From IMG/VR virus record IMGVR_UViG_3300046530_000355, positions 1 through 41,702 of that record: 41,702 nucleotides of DNA. One strand, given 5' to 3'. Both the position numbers and the translations under genes were made by a program. Positions 1,469-41,003 of this stretch are shown one piece after another. The number at the start of each line of letters is the position of its first letter. The stretch's first letter is position 1. The DNA comes from a virus. Under the pieces are notes generated by a model. The model had not been told where the DNA came from. It saw nothing but the letters and a program-made list of their open reading frames with translations, and searched no databases.

Positions 1469-2157
1469 ATGCCTCTGAATCTCATCCATAGGAAAGACTC
1501 CCCAAATTGGTGGATTCGCGGCAGCGTGCGCGGCATCGCGGTCAACGAGAGCACCAAGGTTACCGACCGCGAAACCGCCGATATCATCCGTATCGTCCGT
1601 GAGAAGACCCTGCTCGACGAGAGCATTTTCGGTCGAAAGATCGATGTCACCTTCAATGACGCCGCGGATTCATATCCGCAAGGCGGCGGATCCACGCGTT
1701 TCCTCGATCGTCTACGTGCCGCACTGGGCTCGAAATGTTGAGAAGGCTCCGGCAAGCTGACCTTGATGGTATAGCCAACTCGCTCTACCGAGGCGGTTCT
1801 GCGGAAATACGCAACCGGCAATGCTACACGCCCTTCATCGCCTTCTGGAACCAACTCAGCAGCTCGATTGGATCTGCACGCCGGCGCCTCATGGCTGCCT
1901 GTAATCCGATCGGCGACATCAGCCCCTACACCGCGCGCCACACAGTCTCTATGCAGCTCGTCATCAACGGCGTGCATTCTCACATCAAAGATCAGATCCT
2001 CGGCCATTCGGTCGATAGCATGTCGCGCCACTACACCAGCGTGCCGCAAGCACCTCTGATCGAAGCCATCAACACACTGCCAGTTCCACCCGTTTGGAAG
2101 GACCTACCTTGGTGGGATGATCCGCTCACGTGGTCGCGAAAGCATATTAGGTGGTAA
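1469..2157 (+). pseudogene. Degraded tyrosine recombinase (phage-type integrase)
   Basis: Two fragments in different frames make up one broken integrase. The first (1469-1741) holds the arm-binding N-terminus (MPLNLIHRKDSPNWWIRG). The second (1735-2157) holds part of the core-binding domain and the C-terminal catalytic half with YTARHT, LGHS and the nucleophile Tyr in SRHYTSV. A frameshift near 1735 joins them, and the stretch carrying the first catalytic Arg is missing. The whole is about 690 bases against roughly 1.1 kb for an intact gene. It is a relic of an earlier insertion, followed directly by another recombinase at 2160. Confidence 0.8.
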
Positions 2158-2159
2158 CC

Positions 2160-3209
2160 ATGAACGCCCCTCGCCTCAAAGGTCTCGCCAAAATCCGCAA
2201 GACCCTCGCCACCGGCAAAACCATCACCTACTGCTACGCCTGGCGTGCCGGTCCACTCCTCAAAAACAAAATTGGCGAGCCGATCCAACCGGATGATCCT
2301 GCCCTCCCCGCAGCTTACGAAGCCGCACACGAGGCTCGCCGCAATCCTCAGACAAACGACCTCGCGATGCTCATCACTCGTTTCAGGAAGTCCACAGATT
2401 TTACCGCAACTGCGCACGATACCCAACGCGAGTACAACCGCTATCTTGACCAGATCCGCGAGAAATTCGGATCGATAACGATCGAGGAACTGCAACGACC
2501 CATGACGCGGGGCAAGTTTAAAGAATGGCGGGACAGCCTCGCTCGCACACCCCGCGCCGCGGACTACGCATGGATGGTTTTGGCTCGTGTTCTATCTGTT
2601 GCGAAGGACCGAGGCACGTTGGCGGTAAACATCTGCGAGCGTGGTGGAAGATTGAGCCGAGGCGGGCGGGCGGAGAAAATCTGGACTGATGCGGATATCG
2701 CCCGTTTCGACGCTGTGGCGCCGGCCTACATGCGGCTCGCACTTTTGCTGGGTCTTTGGACTGGGCAACGCCAAGGCGACCTCCTCCGGCTTGCTTGGAC
2801 GGCCTACGATGGCACATCGATCAGGCTCAAGCAAAGCAAGACCGGCGCGCGTGTAACGGTGCCGTTAGCTGCGCCGGTGCGAGCGGCACTCGACACCCTC
2901 GGCCGTGAAGGAAAGACGGTCCTCCTCAACTCTCGTGGGCAGCCTTGGACCAAGGCGGGATTTCAAACGAGTTGGAGAAAAATCTGCGAGAAGGCCGGCA
3001 TAAAGGGCCTGACGTATCACGACCTCAGGGGTACCACGGTGACGCGTCTCGCTCTTGCCGGATGCACAGTGACCGAGATCGCTGCGGTTACTGGCCACTC
3101 GTTGAAGGACGTCGACCGAATTCTTGACGTGCATTACCTAGGAGGACGGGAGGAGCTTGCTCGACGCGCGATTGCGAAGCTGGAGGCGGCTGAGGAAACG
3201 GAAGAATAG
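2160..3209 (+). CDS. Tyrosine recombinase/integrase
   Basis: A 349-residue site-specific recombinase with the catalytic set visible: Arg in TGQRQGDLL (about residue 203), Lys in the beta-hairpin QSKTG, HDLRGT (about 286-291), TGHS and the Tyr nucleophile in DVHYLG (about 325). The N-terminal part is a SAM-like core-binding domain. ATG 2160 is preferred over the upstream in-frame GTG at 2151, which overlaps the stop of the preceding pseudogene. It seems intact. It is not next to a recognisable attachment site, so it may belong to another island rather than the main prophage. Confidence 0.85.
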   Translation: MNAPRLKGLAKIRKTLATGKTITYCYAWRAGPLLKNKIGEPIQPDDPALPAAYEAAHEARRNPQTNDLAMLITRFRKSTDFTATAHDTQREYNRYLDQIREKFGSITIEELQRPMTRGKFKEWRDSLARTPRAADYAWMVLARVLSVAKDRGTLAVNICERGGRLSRGGRAEKIWTDADIARFDAVAPAYMRLALLLGLWTGQRQGDLLRLAWTAYDGTSIRLKQSKTGARVTVPLAAPVRAALDTLGREGKTVLLNSRGQPWTKAGFQTSWRKICEKAGIKGLTYHDLRGTTVTRLALAGCTVTEIAAVTGHSLKDVDRILDVHYLGGREELARRAIAKLEAAEETEE

Positions 3210-3438
3210 TCGTTGAGAATTGCCGGCGTAGTGAAATACGGCTCCGGCCGCACGCTTGGGAACTATCGCGACTTGCGGGTGTTCTGCAGAAGTCACGAGG
3301 GCAACGTCCCCGTCCCTCACGTTGAAGTCCGCCCAATCGAACTTCTCGCCCTCGTGACATTGCCATCAAATCATTGACACCCCCACCATTACTGGCAACT
3401 TAAGCTAGGCGAATCTTCGCCGGGGTAATGGGGAAACT

Positions 3439-3810
3439 ATGAAGACCAAAATTATACTGCTGGCGCTCGCGCTGGCCCTTTCCGCGTGTGCAAAGCGCCC
3501 GGATGCAATAGTTCCGGCAGACATTCCAATGGCTGCATACACGCATCTCAACTGCGAACAGCTTGCTCAGGAATATATGAAGGAGCAGACCAACTTGACG
3601 GCTGTGTCGAAGGCTCAAAGCGATGCCGCAACGGGCGACGCCGTCGGCGTCTTCCTCGTAGGCGTTCCGATGTCATCGACTTTCGGCGGAGACAAGGAAG
3701 GCCAGGTGGCTGTAGCGAAGGGCAAGGTTCAGGCGATCCAATCAGCGATGACCAGCAAGGCCTGCAACGTTCCAATTGTGCCGCCAACGAAGGCAAAGAA
3801 GACGACATAA
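3439..3810 (+). CDS. Small secreted lipoprotein
   Basis: A 123-residue protein with a lipoprotein signal (MKTKIILLALALALSAC, Cys at about residue 17). The mature part has a Cys at about 39, a Gly/Val-rich hydrophobic stretch near residues 68-80 (VGVFLVGVPMSS) and another Cys near 109, giving a possible disulfide. GGGG precedes the ATG. A strong terminator follows immediately. Lipoproteins of this shape occur in rhizobial chromosomes and islands; function is unknown. Confidence 0.75.
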   Translation: MKTKIILLALALALSACAKRPDAIVPADIPMAAYTHLNCEQLAQEYMKEQTNLTAVSKAQSDAATGDAVGVFLVGVPMSSTFGGDKEGQVAVAKGKVQAIQSAMTSKACNVPIVPPTKAKKTT

Positions 3811-3811
3811 C

Positions 3812-3837
3812 ATGGGGCGCTTCGGCGCCCCATCTTT
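3812..3837 (+). terminator. Rho-independent terminator
   Basis: A perfect 9-bp GC-rich stem (ATGGGGCGC/GCGCCCCAT) closed by a UUCG tetraloop and followed by CTTTT, one base after the stop codon of the lipoprotein gene. Confidence 0.85.
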
Positions 3838-3945
3838 TGATCTGAGGATGCTAATTTGGCGCGGGCTACCGCAACATCATCGCAATTAACCCTGTCTGAT
3901 AATCGCCGACGAACGCTCTTCCCCAGATCCGCCTTGGAGGCCTAA

Positions 3946-3976
3946 ATAGAACGAACCCGCCACCGGACTGCAAACC
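3946..3976. other. Imperfect hairpin upstream of broken recombinase
   Basis: The stretch from CCCG (about 3947) to CGGG (about 3976) folds into a stem of 4+3+2 pairs interrupted by two C-A mismatches, around an ACTGCAAA loop. It resembles a tRNA anticodon arm (CTGCAAA is a Cys-type loop), but the stem does not close properly. It could be a remnant crossover site of the adjacent recombinase, or chance. Confidence 0.25.
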
Positions 3977-4016
3977 AGTGACGGGATCTAACCGCCCAAC
4001 ACATATGAGGTGTTCG

Positions 4017-4926
4017 ATGGCTTACCAATATGTAGCGAGCAATCGTTACGTCATCAATAATGATGACGTCTATCCTAAACATGCCAGAAATTTCAGAACC
4101 TTCCGCGAAGCCGCTCAGAGCTACCTCGATCACGGTGGCCAAGGTCGTTATATGGAGGCGCTGGTGGATTTGATCGGCGATAGGCCTGTCTCGTCGATCA
4201 CACCTTTCGATATCAAAGAGGCAGCGCTCAGCATTCTTCCAGACCGAAAGAACGCCACCCTCAACCGATGCGTCCTGACGCCGGCTCGATCGGTGATCAA
4301 TCACGCCTACGAGCGAGGCTGGTTCAACCTGATTCGGATCAAGCGCCTCAAAGAGGAGAAGCCCGTCCGAAGAGGATACGCTACACCAGTGTGGCTGTAC
4401 CTGTTCTTCCGACAATGCCGGGTCGACGGCCTCCCTCACGTAGCCGCGCTGGTACTTTTCATGGCACAGACCGGTGCGCGCGTGTCAGAGGCCCTGCGGC
4501 TGTCGTGGAGCAATGTGAACCTTCATAAGCGGGAAGCCCTCCTGGTGAGAACGAAGACAGATACTAACTCCATCAGGGCGCTCACGGACGAGCTAGTGAC
4601 GAGGTTCACCGAACTGCAGTATCTGCACAGCCCTGCCCCCGACGACCCGATTTTCGTCATCACCAACCGTCACAACGTCAACGACCGGCTAAAGGCGATC
4701 TGCCGACGCGCGGGGATCGAATACAAGCCGGCTCATACATGTAGCCGCGTGACCTACGCCAATATGGCCATGGATCTCGGCGTCGACGTGAAGACCGCAA
4801 TGGCTGGTGGTGGGTGGGTGGGTGAGTTCGCCGATCTTCCTCGATATATATGTTAGACCTCGTCAGAACGCCGGCCGCGTCGTGGCGGATCGCTTCAACC
4901 AGTTGAGCTTTGGCGGTATGGTTTAG
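4017..4926 (+). pseudogene. Tyrosine recombinase frameshifted by a TGGG repeat
   Basis: The open frame from ATG 4017 (good GAGGTG ribosome site) encodes core-binding and catalytic domains, with TGARVSEAL (first catalytic Arg) and HTCSRVTYA. It runs off-frame after MAGGGWV and stops at 4856 without a tyrosine nucleophile. The cause is a (TGGG)3TG run at 4811-4824. Removing one 4-base unit restores GWVSSPIFLDIYVRPRQNAG..., which carries the missing Tyr and ends at TAG 4924-4926, giving a 301-residue protein. So either a recent loss-of-function or a slippage-controlled switch. The histidine and arginine are one residue further apart than in the usual H-x-x-R. Confidence 0.8.
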
Positions 4927-5548: not shown

Positions 5549-5763
5549 GCGACGAAGACAGAACCGCCCGTGCAGAGGCAGCCATCCACCAAGACCACTA
5601 TTGCGACGCCGACGGCTGCAAGAAGTGGGGCTGCTACGGCTTCGAGGAAAGTCGTGCCATCACCCTCTGGTACTGCCCAGAGCATCAGCCGGCCGTGTAT
5701 CGCGGGTTGAAGAGGCATGGCCATGCAAGGCTTGAGGCGGCTGAGATCGCAGACAGCCTATGA
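5545..5763 (+). CDS. Small zinc-finger-like protein, 72 aa (operon gene 3)
   Basis: Start at 5545 overlaps the previous stop (ATGA); the upstream extension of the frame is a shadow of gene 2. Metal-binding residues HYCDADGCKKWGC and YCPEH give a Cys/His cluster typical of small phage zinc-finger proteins. The end overlaps the convergent protease gene by a few bases (5758-5763), so the two transcripts meet tail to tail. Confidence 0.7.
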   Translation: MSDEDRTARAEAAIHQDHYCDADGCKKWGCYGFEESRAITLWYCPEHQPAVYRGLKRHGHARLEAAEIADSL

Positions 5764-6411
5764 CCCTGGCCTGGATAGAGCCTCAATCAGTCGTTGCTTC
5801 TGTGCGAATTCAATAAAATCTTGCTTTTGTTCTGCACCAGAATATGCGGCGAATCCGCTATGACCAGATGCTGCCTTCATCAATTTCACACATTCCATGG
5901 CAGGCAGTTCCCGAAACCAATTGTGATAGAACACTGCGTAAGCGATAAGCGCCTCGTCCCACGGCACCTCTCGAGTGCTGCCAACGGTGACGTAAAAGGG
6001 CTTATGGTTGACATCTTCACTCATTGACATCCTGATAGAAGCGGCACCCCCACAAGTCGAAAAAGTGACCATCAGGCCGAGTGGCAACGCACTGTTGATC
6101 GGGGAAAGAATGTCTCTGAGATCGTCCCAGGATAAGATCCGTCCGTCCGTGAGTTGCACCCCATCTGTGTTCCCGTGCATACTTAAATGGAGAACCGGGG
6201 CCTCTTCTCCATGTTTGCGATAGGCATCCAAAAACGGAAGACCTTCGCCCAACGCGAGAGCTCTTAGAAACTCGTCCAAATTCACCGCAAGGCTGTAAGA
6301 GTGCTTGATACCCGCGAGCTTGAATGTCTCGCATAAGGCGTTGCCCTCTGTTCTCCCGTCGGATAGGTCACGCGGACTTGGAGACTCAATAATGTAAACG
6401 TAGCCAGCCAT
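5758..6411 (-). CDS. Minimal caspase/CHAT-like (clan CD) cysteine protease
   Basis: A 217-residue single-domain protein. A first beta strand (YVYIIES) and a helix are followed by VLHLSMHG with catalytic His79, then VTFSTCGGAAS with catalytic Cys120, the His...Cys dyad order of clan CD peptidases (caspases, CHAT, gingipain-like). The segment after Cys (VGSTREVPWDEALIAYAVFY) also follows the CHAT pattern. There is no secretion signal, so it should act in the cytoplasm. ATG 6411 has a strong AGAGAGG site that is sequestered in a 12-bp hairpin. Proteases of this clan drive abortive defence or regulated cell death when paired with a sensor or a substrate; the partner here is unknown. It is the last gene of the minus-strand accessory block. 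Confidence 0.7.
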   Translation of the reverse strand: MAGYVYIIESPSPRDLSDGRTEGNALCETFKLAGIKHSYSLAVNLDEFLRALALGEGLPFLDAYRKHGEEAPVLHLSMHGNTDGVQLTDGRILSWDDLRDILSPINSALPLGLMVTFSTCGGAASIRMSMSEDVNHKPFYVTVGSTREVPWDEALIAYAVFYHNWFRELPAMECVKLMKAASGHSGFAAYSGAEQKQDFIEFAQKQRLIEALSRPGS

Positions 6412-6418
6412 AAATGCC

Positions 6419-6472
6419 TCTCTAGAACGCAGAACCGGCATCAAAGCACATGGTGACTACGCGTTCTAGAGA
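6419..6472 (-). promoter_or_regulatory. Hairpin sequestering protease ribosome site, with leader ORF
   Basis: A perfect 12-bp inverted repeat, TCTCTAGAACGC (6419-6430) and GCGTTCTAGAGA (6461-6472), with a 30-base spacer. On the mRNA the 3' arm contains most of the Shine-Dalgarno AGAGAGG for ATG 6411, so the folded form would block translation. Within the spacer and arm lies a 9-codon ORF (6451-6422, MCFDAGSAF) whose stop is in the 3' arm; ribosomes on it would open the hairpin. Regulatory meaning is inferred. Confidence 0.55.
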
Positions 6473-6497
6473 CGTGACAGATGTCTGACTACCCCAC

Positions 6498-6545
6498 CGC
6501 TTGATGTCAGGGCGGTGGGCAGCAATCGGCCCGAAGCGGACAATT
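6498..6545. repeat. Composite repeat copy A
   Basis: Module X (CGCTTGATGTCAGGGCGGTGGG, 6498-6519, near 90% identical to the copy at 7066) is followed by module Y' containing GAAGCGGACAATTGGCGCTC. On its own the left part also forms a hairpin, CCCACCGC/GCGGTGGG (about 6494-6519). Together with copy B it brackets the orphan gene 6551-6946. Confidence 0.55.
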
Positions 6546-6550
6546 GGCGC

Positions 6551-6946
6551 TCATTTCAGTAGAATCCATGGGGATCGGCGGGCAATACGCTCCCGAAGGA
6601 TTGCGCCCTTTTGGGTGGCCAAAAGGACATAGCCCTGATCACTCCCAATCCGAAACGGCAGGTAGTTTTTTGCGTCTGCCAAGACAGACGTGTCGTCCAC
6701 GGGCGAAAAACGCAGATCGCCGCCAGCGCATATGTTGACGTACCCTTTCCTGAGCAACAGCGCATTCAACCCACATACTGATATCAATGGGTACTTCTTC
6801 GAATAGCCTAGCGCGGGGTCAGTAATTTCTCCTTCTGGCAGCGACCAAAATGTTTCGTAGAGGCCAATGACGTCATCGGTGGCCGTCTCCAAGATTTTAT
6901 AAAGAACCTCAAGTAGGTCAGGGAAAGAGAAACTGCCTTTGGTCAT
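6551..6946 (-). CDS. Orphan protein in accessory block, about 131 aa
   Basis: I do not recognise this protein. ATG 6946 (MTKGSFSFPDLLEVLYK...) is the first ATG in frame; the frame itself begins with a TTG at 6997, and neither has a good ribosome site, so the gene may be 5'-truncated. The sequence looks genuine: a helical N-terminal third, then alternating hydrophobic strands (YPLISVCGLNALLL; GYVLLATQKGAILRERI). No membrane segment or catalytic motif is obvious. It lies between an HNH nuclease and a clan CD protease gene, on the same strand, and is bracketed by repeats, so it may be a sensor, an immunity protein or the protease substrate. That is speculation from context. Confidence 0.5.
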   Translation of the reverse strand: MTKGSFSFPDLLEVLYKILETATDDVIGLYETFWSLPEGEITDPALGYSKKYPLISVCGLNALLLRKGYVNICAGGDLRFSPVDDTSVLADAKNYLPFRIGSDQGYVLLATQKGAILRERIARRSPWILLK

Positions 6947-7026
6947 GAGTTTGCAACCAGCCAGATGATTGAAGGCCCTTAACTTCGCATAGCGCAATTA
7001 CCAAACTATCCGTAGTGCTGTCGATA

Positions 7027-7090: not shown

Positions 7091-7873
7091 TTAAGGTGGC
7101 GATGTTGGCCCCACGACTACCTGCCATGCCGGTGCGCCATAGGACGCGAAAAGGTGGACGATAATGGTCGTCAGGTGGGTTCTGCGCCTGACGTAAAGGC
7201 AGTGGAAGGCGCTATCGGTGTCGAGCTCAAGTTCATCTTCTACGCCGCCAACGAAGCTGAAAACGTCGAGACGCTGTCCCGACAAAAGCTCTCTAATTTC
7301 ATGGCCGTCGAACGCGTCAATGCCGAGCTCAATCGCTGCGTAGGTGTAAGCGATTTTCGCAACAAGCAAGGGCATCGTCTCAAGAGTGAACTCAACCCCG
7401 AATTCCGTTTGACGGTATTTCACTCGCTCCGGCAGCAAGTTGCCCCACCACATTTCAATTTGGCCTTTGAAGCCGGGACCGTGGTACTGCCCACGCAGAA
7501 GCGAAGGCGGAGGGAACCGCACCCATTGCACGCGGCCAGGATGTTTGCCGGGATGCAATTGAACTTCTCGCATAAGCCCACACTCGTCGAGGACCTTGAA
7601 CGGATGAGTCTTAAGCGGGATCTGATGTTTTCTTTTGCGTCGCTTGAGTGCCAAGACGGCTCGCGCGTCCAGCAAATCTACCTGCATGGCTTCATTCTCG
7701 AAGCGCTCGTTCATCCCTCCATTACAGTCGGCGCACGATCCCTGCCTGATGTAGAACTCGCCGGCACTACTCAACCCGTAGGGGATCACGTGCTCCCGCG
7801 TGAGCGGTTTGTCCGTCCTCAAGCAGAAGATGCATCGCCCTATGCCATCCTCATGCCTGTTCGGCATCTTCAT
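7091..7873 (-). CDS. HNH endonuclease with large C-terminal domain
   Basis: The N-terminus carries an HNH/zinc site: CIFC (Cys14, Cys17), the EHVIP motif with His28, and CADCN (Cys47, Cys50, Asn51), as in HNH_5-type nucleases of defence and mobile elements. The remaining 200 residues are unassigned, with a hydrophobic middle (LLVAKIAYTYAAIELGI) and strand-rich end. ATG 7873 is chosen; ATG 7867 and GTG 7912 are alternatives, none with a strong ribosome site. It follows the last tail gene at 45-85 bases and heads the accessory block. It likely cleaves DNA; target unknown. Confidence 0.7.
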   Translation of the reverse strand: MKMPNRHEDGIGRCIFCLRTDKPLTREHVIPYGLSSAGEFYIRQGSCADCNGGMNERFENEAMQVDLLDARAVLALKRRKRKHQIPLKTHPFKVLDECGLMREVQLHPGKHPGRVQWVRFPPPSLLRGQYHGPGFKGQIEMWWGNLLPERVKYRQTEFGVEFTLETMPLLVAKIAYTYAAIELGIDAFDGHEIRELLSGQRLDVFSFVGGVEDELELDTDSAFHCLYVRRRTHLTTIIVHLFASYGAPAWQVVVGPTSPP

Positions 7874-7956
7874 CGTTCTGCTGACCAAGGGCGAATACCT
7901 TTTCGACTCCACTTAGTCTTGAATACCAAGCGAAGTCGCGGCTGTCATCGCTACCT

Positions 7957-11590: not shown

Positions 11591-11884
11591 TTACCGGCCC
11601 GCCTCGACGGCAGGATCTTGTTGATTGGCAATGACCTTTTCCTTTTCAGGTTGGGCAATGAGACGCGCACCCCACGCCAATCCGAGCAGCACCAGGGTTA
11701 ACCACCATGGAAGCCAGTCGGAGACGTACGGGACGACGTTGAGGATGATGTCGACTATAGCGGCAAGTTCGATGCCGCGAAGCGACCAAGCGCGCGCGAG
11801 GATGCGGCGCGCGTCAGGGATGAACTGGACGCGCGAAAGCGCCCGTCGCCAGATGGTGATGGGGAACATAGACTTTCCGGACAT
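11591..11884 (-). CDS. Holin-like membrane protein
   Basis: Up to 97 residues, with a hydrophobic region from about residue 38 to 77 that can form two membrane helices (ELAAIVDIILNVVPYVSDWL and WWLTLVLLGLAWGARLI) and a charged tail ending EKEKVIANQQD. It is directly upstream of the endolysin gene, which is the usual holin position. The start may be ATG 11884 or the internal ATG (MFPITIW) at about 11869. A strong bidirectional terminator precedes it. Confidence 0.65.
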   Translation of the reverse strand: MSGKSMFPITIWRRALSRVQFIPDARRILARAWSLRGIELAAIVDIILNVVPYVSDWLPWWLTLVLLGLAWGARLIAQPEKEKVIANQQDPAVEAGR

Positions 11885-11885
11885 G

Positions 11886-11914
11886 AAAAAGCCGCCTCGG
11901 TGGGCGGCTTTTTT
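11886..11914. terminator. Bidirectional Rho-independent terminator
   Basis: A GCCGCC/GGCGGC stem with TCGGTG loop, preceded by five A and followed by six T, so it works on both strands. It lies between the fibre gene (11969-14461) and the lysis cassette and may lower lysis-gene expression by partial termination of the late transcript. Confidence 0.85.
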
Positions 11915-11931
11915 GGCGCTACAAATAGGGT

Positions 11932-39818: not shown

Positions 39819-41003
39819 ATGGCAAAAATCAAAAAGCGAAGCTGGACGAACGCGAGCGGAAAGCATGAGGCGTGGCAGTTGGATTTCACCGATCGGTTCG
39901 GCAGGCGACATAGAGAGCAATTCAATCTCAAACGCGACGCTGAGAACCGACTCGGCGAATTGCACGGCACTACCCGCGCAGGCACATATCGCGCGCTGGC
40001 CGAAAAGTCCGACGTCGCGGCAGCGTGCAAGGCGTTCTGCGAATACATGACCGAGCGCGCGGATCGAAAGGAGAAGGTTACCGAATCCTATCTCCGCACG
40101 ACGCGCCAGCACGCCGAGAACTATATCGATCCAGTGAACGAATACGTGGTGAGACGGCCCGGCGTTGTGCGGAAGGACACGATCAACTTTAAGGGCGGCA
40201 TCGGTACTATCAAACTGTCCGACTTGACGGCGGCCCGAGTGATCAAGTTTCGCGACGACATGCGGAAGCACAGCGCCGGCATTGTCACCACCCGAAGAGT
40301 TATGGGTACACTGTCACGGATACTGAAGCATGCAGTCGAGAGTGACATGGCAACAATGAACGTTGCCAAGGGCATCAGGGTCATCGGCACCCGCGATGAG
40401 GATTCCGAACGTGTAACGCCACCGGCTAAAGCTGATCTCGCAGCTCTTCTGAAAGCTGCTAAGCCGGACTTCAAGATTCGGATACAGTTCGCCGCAGCTA
40501 CCGGCCTCCGCGCTTCTGAGCAGTGGGCACTTCGTTGGTCTCGGATCGATCTGCAAGCGGGCAAAGTCACGGTCGACAGCCGAGTGGACGCATTCGGCAA
40601 TATCGACGTAACCAAAAGTGCTGCGGGCATGCGAACGGTGCCAATCGGCAGAGCGATGGTTGAAGAGCTTTCCGCCTGGCGCGATCGATCGAAGCACAAG
40701 GAGAACGACGGGTTTGTCTTTCCGGATTCGCGCGGAGGCTTTACCCGACACACCAACTACATGAAGCGAAACTGGTCCCCGCTTGTCATTGCGGCAGAAG
40801 TCGAGCCTATAGGGTGGCACGCCCTAAGGCATTATGCCGTATCCACCTGGATCGAGGCAGGCCTTCAGCCAAAAGCGGTACAGACCCTAGCCGGCCACGC
40901 TTCGTATGCCATAACGATGAATCGATATGGCCATCTATTTCCCTCGGACGACCACCAAGCAGCTTTCGACAAGATCGCAGCGACACTAGCAGAAGCCGAA
41001 TGA
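39819..41003 (+). CDS. Phage integrase (tyrosine recombinase)
   Basis: A 394-residue integrase with GAGG before the ATG. An arm-binding N-terminus (MAKIKKRSWTNASGKHEAWQ) and SAM-like core domain are followed by the catalytic domain: Arg about 230 (TGLRASEQ), HALRH (His about 334), AGHAS and the nucleophile Tyr about 369 (NRYGHLF). It is complete and is followed at 55 bases by a tRNA 3' fragment, so it is the integrase of this prophage. Confidence 0.9.
   Translation: MAKIKKRSWTNASGKHEAWQLDFTDRFGRRHREQFNLKRDAENRLGELHGTTRAGTYRALAEKSDVAAACKAFCEYMTERADRKEKVTESYLRTTRQHAENYIDPVNEYVVRRPGVVRKDTINFKGGIGTIKLSDLTAARVIKFRDDMRKHSAGIVTTRRVMGTLSRILKHAVESDMATMNVAKGIRVIGTRDEDSERVTPPAKADLAALLKAAKPDFKIRIQFAAATGLRASEQWALRWSRIDLQAGKVTVDSRVDAFGNIDVTKSAAGMRTVPIGRAMVEELSAWRDRSKHKENDGFVFPDSRGGFTRHTNYMKRNWSPLVIAAEVEPIGWHALRHYAVSTWIEAGLQPKAVQTLAGHASYAITMNRYGHLFPSDDHQAAFDKIAATLAEAE

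What the first reader, a model, noticed from the sequence alone, without database searches (positions are those of the whole stretch)
5758..6472. Phage-borne minimal caspase-like protease whose ribosome site is locked in a hairpin with a leader ORF
Seen: His79/Cys120 in SMHG and FSTCGG contexts; a perfect 12-bp inverted repeat with 30-base spacer whose 3' arm contains most of the AGAGAGG ribosome site for the protease; a 9-codon ORF (6451-6422) ending inside that arm. Known: clan CD proteases, including caspase-like and CHAT types, act in bacterial defence and regulated death and are tightly controlled. Inferred: translation of the leader, or a signal that opens the hairpin, releases protease synthesis. 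This is an unusual control layer for such a protease.
Basis: partly seen in the sequence, partly recalled or inferred. Interest (0 to 1): 0.72.

Follow-up and report, generated by a model that had tools for sequence, protein, structure and literature searches.

The report
Phage-carried solitary caspase-like protease gene
A bacterial virus carries, as removable cargo, a small unnamed relative of the proteases that bacteria and animals use to trigger cell death, and this copy has a folded RNA leader that would probably keep it from being made by accident; the leader is private to this virus and its control role is unproven.

Summary
Window 6411-5758 (-) encodes 217 aa with His79/Cys120, preceded by a perfect 12-bp inverted repeat that covers 5 of the 7 bases of the ribosome site; the 9-codon ORF exists. 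The protease reading is now well supported. AlphaFold2 with 14 relatives (pLDDT 81) matches SAVED-CHAT, legumain and caspases, and His79 and Cys120 are invariant in 22 relatives. It belongs to a rare, unnamed, stand-alone CHAT/caspase-like family with no Pfam match of its own. The family sits on plasmids, beside defence genes in bacteria, and as removable cargo in three phage contigs. None of 55 loci from related phages has it. The control reading is only partly supported. Any transcript starting about 20 nt or more upstream of the repeat is predicted to bury both ribosome site and start codon. But the hairpin is absent from the closest phage homologue (56% identity) and from 16 other relatives, its folding z-score is shared by about 4% of windows, and the leader ORF lacks a ribosome site. 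Best explanation: a phage cargo protease, probably an anti-phage or host-directed effector, whose hairpin silences read-through from the late operon, as in phage T4 gene e. New variant of a known kind; interest moderate.

The parts
5758..6411 (-). CDS of the caspase/CHAT-like protein, 217 aa (P0001)
   Evidence: relatives; fold
6175..6177 (-). codon of His79, predicted catalytic, last part of strand E73-81
   Evidence: invariant in 22 relatives; DSSP of model
6052..6054 (-). codon of Cys120, predicted nucleophile, just after strand E114-118
   Evidence: invariant in 22 relatives; DSSP of model
6417..6423 (-). Shine-Dalgarno AGAGAGG, 5 nt before ATG 6411
   Evidence: sequence
6461..6472 (-). 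5' arm of perfect inverted repeat (TCTCTAGAACGC)
6419..6430 (-). 3' arm of perfect inverted repeat (GCGTTCTAGAGA), overlaps 5 of 7 Shine-Dalgarno bases
6394..6497 (-). extended imperfect hairpin around the repeat; its lower part also pairs the start codon when the transcript starts at or upstream of ~6490
6422..6451 (-). leader ORF MCFDAGSAF, no Shine-Dalgarno; probably incidental
   Evidence: sequence
6493..6519 (-). second, GC-rich hairpin (CCCACCGC/GCGGTGGG) between ORF148 and the protease, no T tract; possible end of the upstream transcript
6551..6997 (-). ORF148, no family match; same accessory block
7091..7912 (-). HNH_5-like nuclease gene; same accessory block
   Evidence: PF14279 E 6.7e-5, below gathering score
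5497..5763 (+). small gene of the integrase-side module, convergent with the protease (ends overlap by 6 bp); marks the cargo border
   Evidence: phrog_29777; homologues on the integrase side of related phages

Best explanation
A temperate rhizobial HK97-type phage carries, at the end of its late operon and against its integrase module, an optional cargo gene for a stand-alone clan CD cysteine endopeptidase of the CHAT/caspase kind with a His79-Cys120 dyad. Its most likely job is as an effector: a specific cut in a phage or host protein that defends the lysogen against other phages, or alters the host. The leader folds into a hairpin that hides the ribosome site and start codon on long transcripts reading in from the lysis operon, so that the protease is not made during lytic read-through and is made only from a nearer start or after the leader is opened, as for T4 gene e. 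Shown here: gene, predicted fold, conserved dyad, family, cargo status, predicted pairing. Inferred: protease activity, defence role, and control by the hairpin.
For: Fold: AlphaFold2 with 14 relatives, pLDDT 81.4 and pTM 0.79; best PDB matches SAVED-CHAT 8tl0 (E 5e-7), legumain, CED-3 and caspase-7/8. His79 and Cys120 are invariant in all 22 members. The family profile finds a rhizobial protein whose matched region is also a significant Pfam CHAT hit. Cargo: none of 55 loci of related phages has protease, ORF148 or HNH, while tail, lysis and integrase genes are shared. The homologue in phage L008 also sits just after the lysis genes. In L091 it stands alone between the replication genes and the terminase genes, on the opposite strand. 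Tree: the phage copies need at least two changes of the phage label on well supported branches. Defence neighbours of bacterial and plasmid relatives: SIR2 plus ATPase, type I restriction, OLD/Gabija-like ATPase, SduA, PDC-S42. Rare: 7 of 297 genomes of one order. Hairpin: P about 1.0, ribosome site 0.92 and AUG 0.94 paired for starts at or upstream of 6490.
Against: No activity or substrate is known. P0001 itself matches no Pfam or PADLOC model and no significant PHROGs model. The defence neighbours differ from locus to locus and were not compared with a background. The hairpin is not conserved in any relative. No promoter could be recognised near or inside the hairpin, although the scan does not cover alphaproteobacterial promoters. 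If the transcript starts between 6468 and 6460, a different pairing still hides the AUG.
Confidence: 0.5

Rival explanations
1. The protease is cargo as above, but the inverted repeat has no RNA role: it is a chance repeat, or a DNA operator made of two CTCTAGAA-like half-palindromes 42 bp apart (four helical turns) bound by a repressor.
For: Hairpin absent from all relatives. 4% of windows fold as well against shuffles. The only two TCTAGA words in the window are these two sites. In relatives L004 and L012 an HTH regulator gene stands divergently beside the protease.
Against: Its 3' arm lies on the ribosome site, and its site pairing is the top value of 31 gene starts. No HTH gene is adjacent in this window. 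No third copy of the motif exists.
Confidence: 0.4
2. One reading: translation or stalling on the 9-codon leader ORF opens the hairpin and releases protease synthesis, as toiL does for topAI.
For: The ORF exists and ends inside the 3' arm, 10 bases before the ATG. The toiL-topAI precedent is a toxin-antitoxin operon (PMC12121999).
Against: No Shine-Dalgarno sequence before ATG 6451. No similar ORF in relatives, none conserved in L091. A short ORF from one ATG is expected by chance. toiL needs its own Shine-Dalgarno for induction (PMC12121999).
Confidence: 0.07
3. The protein serves the phage's own cycle (for example counter-defence or processing of a virion protein) rather than defence of the lysogen.
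For: In the window and in L008 it follows the lysis genes on the late strand. Phages use proteases for maturation (general knowledge).
Against: A separate gene sits in the usual head-protease position before the capsid gene (27712-27062, judged by position only). Related phages with the same head, tail and lysis genes lack it. Relatives occur on plasmids and in bacteria beside defence genes. In L091 it is on the strand opposite to the structural genes.
Confidence: 0.2
4. HNH gene, ORF148 and protease form one system in which the protease activates a nuclease, like canu.
For: Adjacent, same strand, all three missing from related phages. Caspase-nuclease defence pairs exist (PMC12799240). L015 has an HNH_5-like and a GIY-YIG gene next to its homologue.
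Against: L091 and L008 have the protease without the other two. The L015 HNH protein is not detectably related to the window's. The intergenic gaps (93 and 139 nt) do not suggest a tight operon. The canu nuclease is MBL-fold, not HNH.
Confidence: 0.12

Closest known systems
CHAT proteases (PF12770): SAVED-CHAT/CalpL, TPR-CHAT of type III-E CRISPR (Craspase), Borvo
   Same: Fold, His then Cys order, HxSxHG and SxC contexts, defence setting; best PDB match is SAVED-CHAT 8tl0
   Different: Only about 190-220 aa, no sensor domain (SAVED, TPR); below the Pfam gathering score; own invariant N-terminal motif around IIES-D-R-EG
Caspases, metacaspases and legumain (C14, C13)
   Same: Caspase-like alpha/beta fold, dyad on the ends of two neighbouring strands
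   Different: About 12% identity; no C14 profile match
canu caspase-nuclease defence (PMC12799240)
   Same: Caspase-type protease in a mobile defence setting, here with a nuclease gene nearby
   Different: Canu has an Ig-like CanA, CanB and an MBL-fold pro-nuclease; none seen here
Phage-related metacaspase operons of Clostridium noted in 2012 (PMC3501461)
   Same: Caspase homologue carried in phage-related DNA
   Different: Long operons of 11-18 genes; here a solitary minimal protein
T4 genes e, soc, 49, I-TevI (PMC3014915)
   Same: Ribosome site and/or AUG hidden in a helix on longer, upstream-started transcripts
   Different: In T4 gene e late promoters remove the 5' arm and the effect was measured; here no promoter is known and nothing is measured
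toiL-topAI leader of E. coli (PMC12121999)
   Same: Short ORF plus hairpin over the ribosome site of a toxin-antitoxin gene
   Different: toiL has its own Shine-Dalgarno sequence and its translation is needed for induction; this ORF has none

Membership tests
Clan CD cysteine protease fold (caspase/CHAT type) | Caspase-like alpha/beta fold | tested here: met
   56 PDB matches with E <= 0.001; the 50 listed are nearly all SAVED-CHAT, legumain/AEP, GPI transamidase and caspases
Clan CD cysteine protease fold (caspase/CHAT type) | His then Cys, each at or just after the end of a core strand, conserved | tested here: met
   H79 and C120 invariant in 22 members; strands E73-81 and E114-118. The His-Cys distance itself could not be measured
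Clan CD cysteine protease fold (caspase/CHAT type) | Peptidase activity | not testable with these tools
   needs purified protein
CHAT (PF12770) | Score above the Pfam gathering cut-off | tested here: not met
   P0001 no hit; 6 of 14 relatives weak hits, best E 0.0056; link only through L083
Peptidase_C14 (PF00656) | Profile match | tested here: not met
   no match in P0001 or the 14 members
Borvo (BovA) | PADLOC BovA match | tested here: not met
   P0001 none; one relative at E 0.031
Canu | Downstream MBL-fold pro-nuclease with CanB and Ig-like fold | tested here: not met
   no such neighbour in the window; nearby nuclease is HNH_5-like and upstream
Gasdermin-activating bacterial caspase | Gasdermin gene beside the protease | tested here: inconclusive
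   ORF148 and the HNH protein show no gasdermin match in Pfam; small divergent partners cannot be excluded
T4 gene e type ribosome-site hairpin | Ribosome site/AUG paired on long transcripts | tested here: met
   prediction only: GAGG 0.92, AUG 0.94 paired for starts at or upstream of 6490
T4 gene e type ribosome-site hairpin | Second transcript start that removes the 5' arm and frees the site | tested here: inconclusive
   no promoter recognised; starts at 6468-6460 still hide AUG, start at 6455 partly frees it
toiL type sensory uORF | uORF with its own Shine-Dalgarno sequence | tested here: not met
   sequence before ATG 6451 is CGCGTAGTCACC

The most novel reading that the evidence does not exclude
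A previously unnamed family of stand-alone minimal caspase/CHAT-like proteases acts as a single-gene anti-phage effector that phages themselves carry, and in this phage a ribosome-site hairpin keeps it silent on lytic read-through so that the phage does not trip its own weapon.
Probability: 0.2. Interest if true: 0.68.

Novelty: new variant of a known kind. Interest (0 to 1): 0.42.

Why it matters
Bacterial caspase/CHAT proteases in defence usually come fused or paired with sensors. This family is little more than a protease domain, has no Pfam, PHROGs or PADLOC model that covers it, and is shared by phages, plasmids and defence islands across Pseudomonadota, Nitrospirota and Bacteroidota. If it acts alone, it raises the question of how such a small protease is switched on and what it cuts. 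The leader would add a case of a phage silencing its own toxic cargo on read-through transcripts, which a simple reporter can test.

Tried and rejected
The first viral-contig scan with P0001 alone gave two peptide-pattern hits, both spurious (L002, L003), and the first genome scan gave none; alignment-based scans found the family. The single-sequence AlphaFold2 model was useless (pLDDT 47.5). No relative in annotated phage genomes and no significant PDB sequence relative. No Rfam family in the region. The exact repeat with a 20-40 nt spacer occurs in no other viral contig. No tRNA and no att-like repeat of 15 bp or more between the ends was found. The idea of an HNH-ORF148-protease system was lowered because L091 and L008 lack the partners. 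The weak DUF6642 match of two relatives led to no literature. A 12-bp hairpin as the minimum-energy fold depends on the transcript start: it is lost for starts at or inside the 5' arm when coding sequence is included.

Full report
WHAT WAS CHECKED. The gene is on the minus strand at 6411-5758 and encodes 217 aa. His79 lies in HLSMHGNTDG and Cys120 in TFSTCGGAA. The perfect 12-bp inverted repeat lies at 6472-6461 and 6430-6419 with 30 bases between the arms. The ribosome site AGAGAGG is 6423-6417, and five of its seven bases lie in the 3' arm. The leader ORF 6451-6422 (MCFDAGSAF) is there, but nothing like a Shine-Dalgarno sequence precedes it.

IS THE REPEAT MORE THAN CHANCE? It is the only perfect repeat of at least 12 bp with a spacer up to 60 in the window; one appeared in twelve simulated windows. 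Its two arms hold the only two TCTAGA words of the window. Among 31 gene starts, the next longest perfect repeat is 9 bp, and the mean pairing of the ribosome-site region (0.94) is the highest. Against this, the whole leader folds only 2.9 standard deviations below shuffles, and 117 of 2868 windows of this phage do as well (those z-scores are noisy, 15 shuffles each). The repeat is a clear outlier by position; the folding energy is not exceptional.

WHAT THE HAIRPIN WOULD DO. If the transcript starts at 6490 or further upstream, the repeat pairs with probability near 1. An imperfect extension (about 6497-6394) then also pairs the start codon: GAGG 0.92, AUG 0.94. If the transcript starts at 6480-6472, a second pairing between the leader and the first codons competes, and this also hides the AUG. 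If it starts at 6468-6460 the repeat cannot form, but the AUG is still paired; only from about 6455 is it partly freed. The GAGG core sits at the fraying end of the 12-bp stem, so 'locked' is too strong for that stem alone. Such a layout is well known in phage T4, where genes e, soc, 49 and I-TevI hide the ribosome site on longer transcripts, and gene e is freed on short late transcripts (PMC3014915). E. coli topAI combines a hairpin with a uORF (PMC12121999), but there the uORF needs its own Shine-Dalgarno sequence.

CONSERVATION OF THE LEADER. Sixteen relatives were examined and none has a comparable repeat, stable leader or matching uORF. The decisive comparison is L091, a homologue in another phage contig (59% identity over 194 aligned columns in the tree alignment, 56% by tblastn). 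Its leader has no repeat of 8 bp or more near the start and its ribosome-site pairing is 0.70. The exact repeat was found in no other viral contig. The control layer is therefore private to this phage, and its function is an inference from one sequence.

THE PROTEIN. P0001 matches no Pfam or PADLOC model and no significant PHROGs model. Protein searches found relatives on plasmids of Salmonella, Vibrio, Paracoccus and, more distantly, Klebsiella. Profile-guided scans found 13 bacterial loci and two more phage contigs. In 22 aligned members the invariant residues include D15, G23, H75, S77, H79, G84, C120 and Y162. With 14 members as alignment, AlphaFold2 gives pLDDT 81.4 and pTM 0.79. His79 lies in the last part of strand 73-81 and Cys120 follows strand 114-118, the arrangement of clan CD. 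Foldseek against the PDB gives SAVED-CHAT 8tl0 first (E 5e-7, TM 0.57-0.62), then legumain, CED-3 and caspases. Against viral models it gives uncharacterised and caspase proteins. By sequence the family lies just outside Pfam CHAT: six of 14 members score weakly (best E 0.0056). The family profile also reaches a rhizobial 562-aa protein whose matched region is a significant CHAT domain. Filing: caspase/CHAT-like fold, yes; member of Pfam CHAT by its own rule, no.

THE SETTING. The window is a temperate HK97-type phage: terminase, portal, head, tape measure, tail fibre, endolysin, primase and integrases. The block HNH gene - ORF148 - protease (7912-5758) lies between the lysis end of the late operon and the integrase-side genes on the other strand. 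Fifty-five loci from related phages, found through the endolysin and a tail protein, share tail, lysis and, in part, integrase-side genes, but none has any of the three; 22 of the loci include an endolysin homologue, so not every locus spans the site. The block is lower in G+C (about 51-56%) than the late genes (60%). In phage L008 the homologue also follows the lysis genes. In L091 it stands alone, on the strand opposite to its neighbours, between replication and terminase genes. On the tree, the phage label needs at least two changes on well supported branches. In one bacterial order the family occurs in 7 of 297 genomes, counting distant matches, and L081 is a truncated copy that has lost the His half. 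This is optional cargo that moves.

LIKELY FUNCTION. Neighbours of bacterial and plasmid relatives include a SIR2 protein with an ATPase (L005), type I restriction-modification (L011), an OLD/Gabija-like ATPase (L014), an SduA-like protein (L012) and PDC-S42 (L018). No background rate was measured, and the partners differ, so this is suggestive only. Caspase-type proteases are known effectors in bacterial immunity, for example canu (PMC12799240) and Borvo or type III-E CRISPR (PMC10952713). A defence or host-directed effector is the most economical reading, but neither activity nor substrate is known. A role in the phage's own cycle is less likely, because relatives of the phage do without it and its own relatives live outside phages too. 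A nuclease-activation pair with the HNH gene is possible but not supported by L091 or L008.

PUTTING IT TOGETHER. Shown: real gene, conserved dyad, predicted caspase/CHAT-like fold, rare mobile family, cargo position, strong predicted pairing over this copy's ribosome site. Inferred: peptidase activity, effector role, silencing of read-through from the lysis operon. Unlikely: the leader ORF as the switch. As a kind, both halves have precedents: phage-related metacaspase operons were noted in 2012 (PMC3501461), and ribosome-site hairpins are classical. The new elements are the family itself and the combination.

Noticed in passing
window 1469-4856 and 39819-41003: Several tyrosine integrases in one record: intact ones at 2151-3209 and 3978-4856, one at 39819-41003, and an apparently broken one at 1469-2157. 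L041 carries the 2151-type with a neighbouring intact integrase, L025 the 3978-type, so lysogeny modules seem stacked.
   Followed up: partly
L087 2490-4064 (-): A 524-aa Bacteroidota protein with an N-terminal caspase domain (PF00656) and a C-terminal CHAT-like domain, two clan CD domains in one chain.
   Followed up: no
L085 2734-4335 (-): A second, longer (533 aa) family member in the same Mesorhizobium genome as L014, with a C-terminal extension of unknown nature.
   Followed up: no
L081 1411-1899 (-): Truncated copy in a rhizobial genome, 45% identical to the Cys half of the window protein, with the His half missing.
   Followed up: partly
L007 3773-4651 (+): Klebsiella plasmid relative with an HMG-box-like C-terminal part, found on 16 Klebsiella plasmid records.
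   Followed up: no
L004 and L012: Enterobacterial versions sit beside a divergent HTH regulator gene and share a small secreted-looking protein gene downstream, which may be a conserved partner.
   Followed up: no
window 11804-11919 (+): Strongest folding signal of the window against shuffles (about -58 kcal/mol, z about -9 with few shuffles), overlapping an 11-bp inverted repeat at 11886-11913; possibly a terminator between lysis and tail genes.
   Followed up: no
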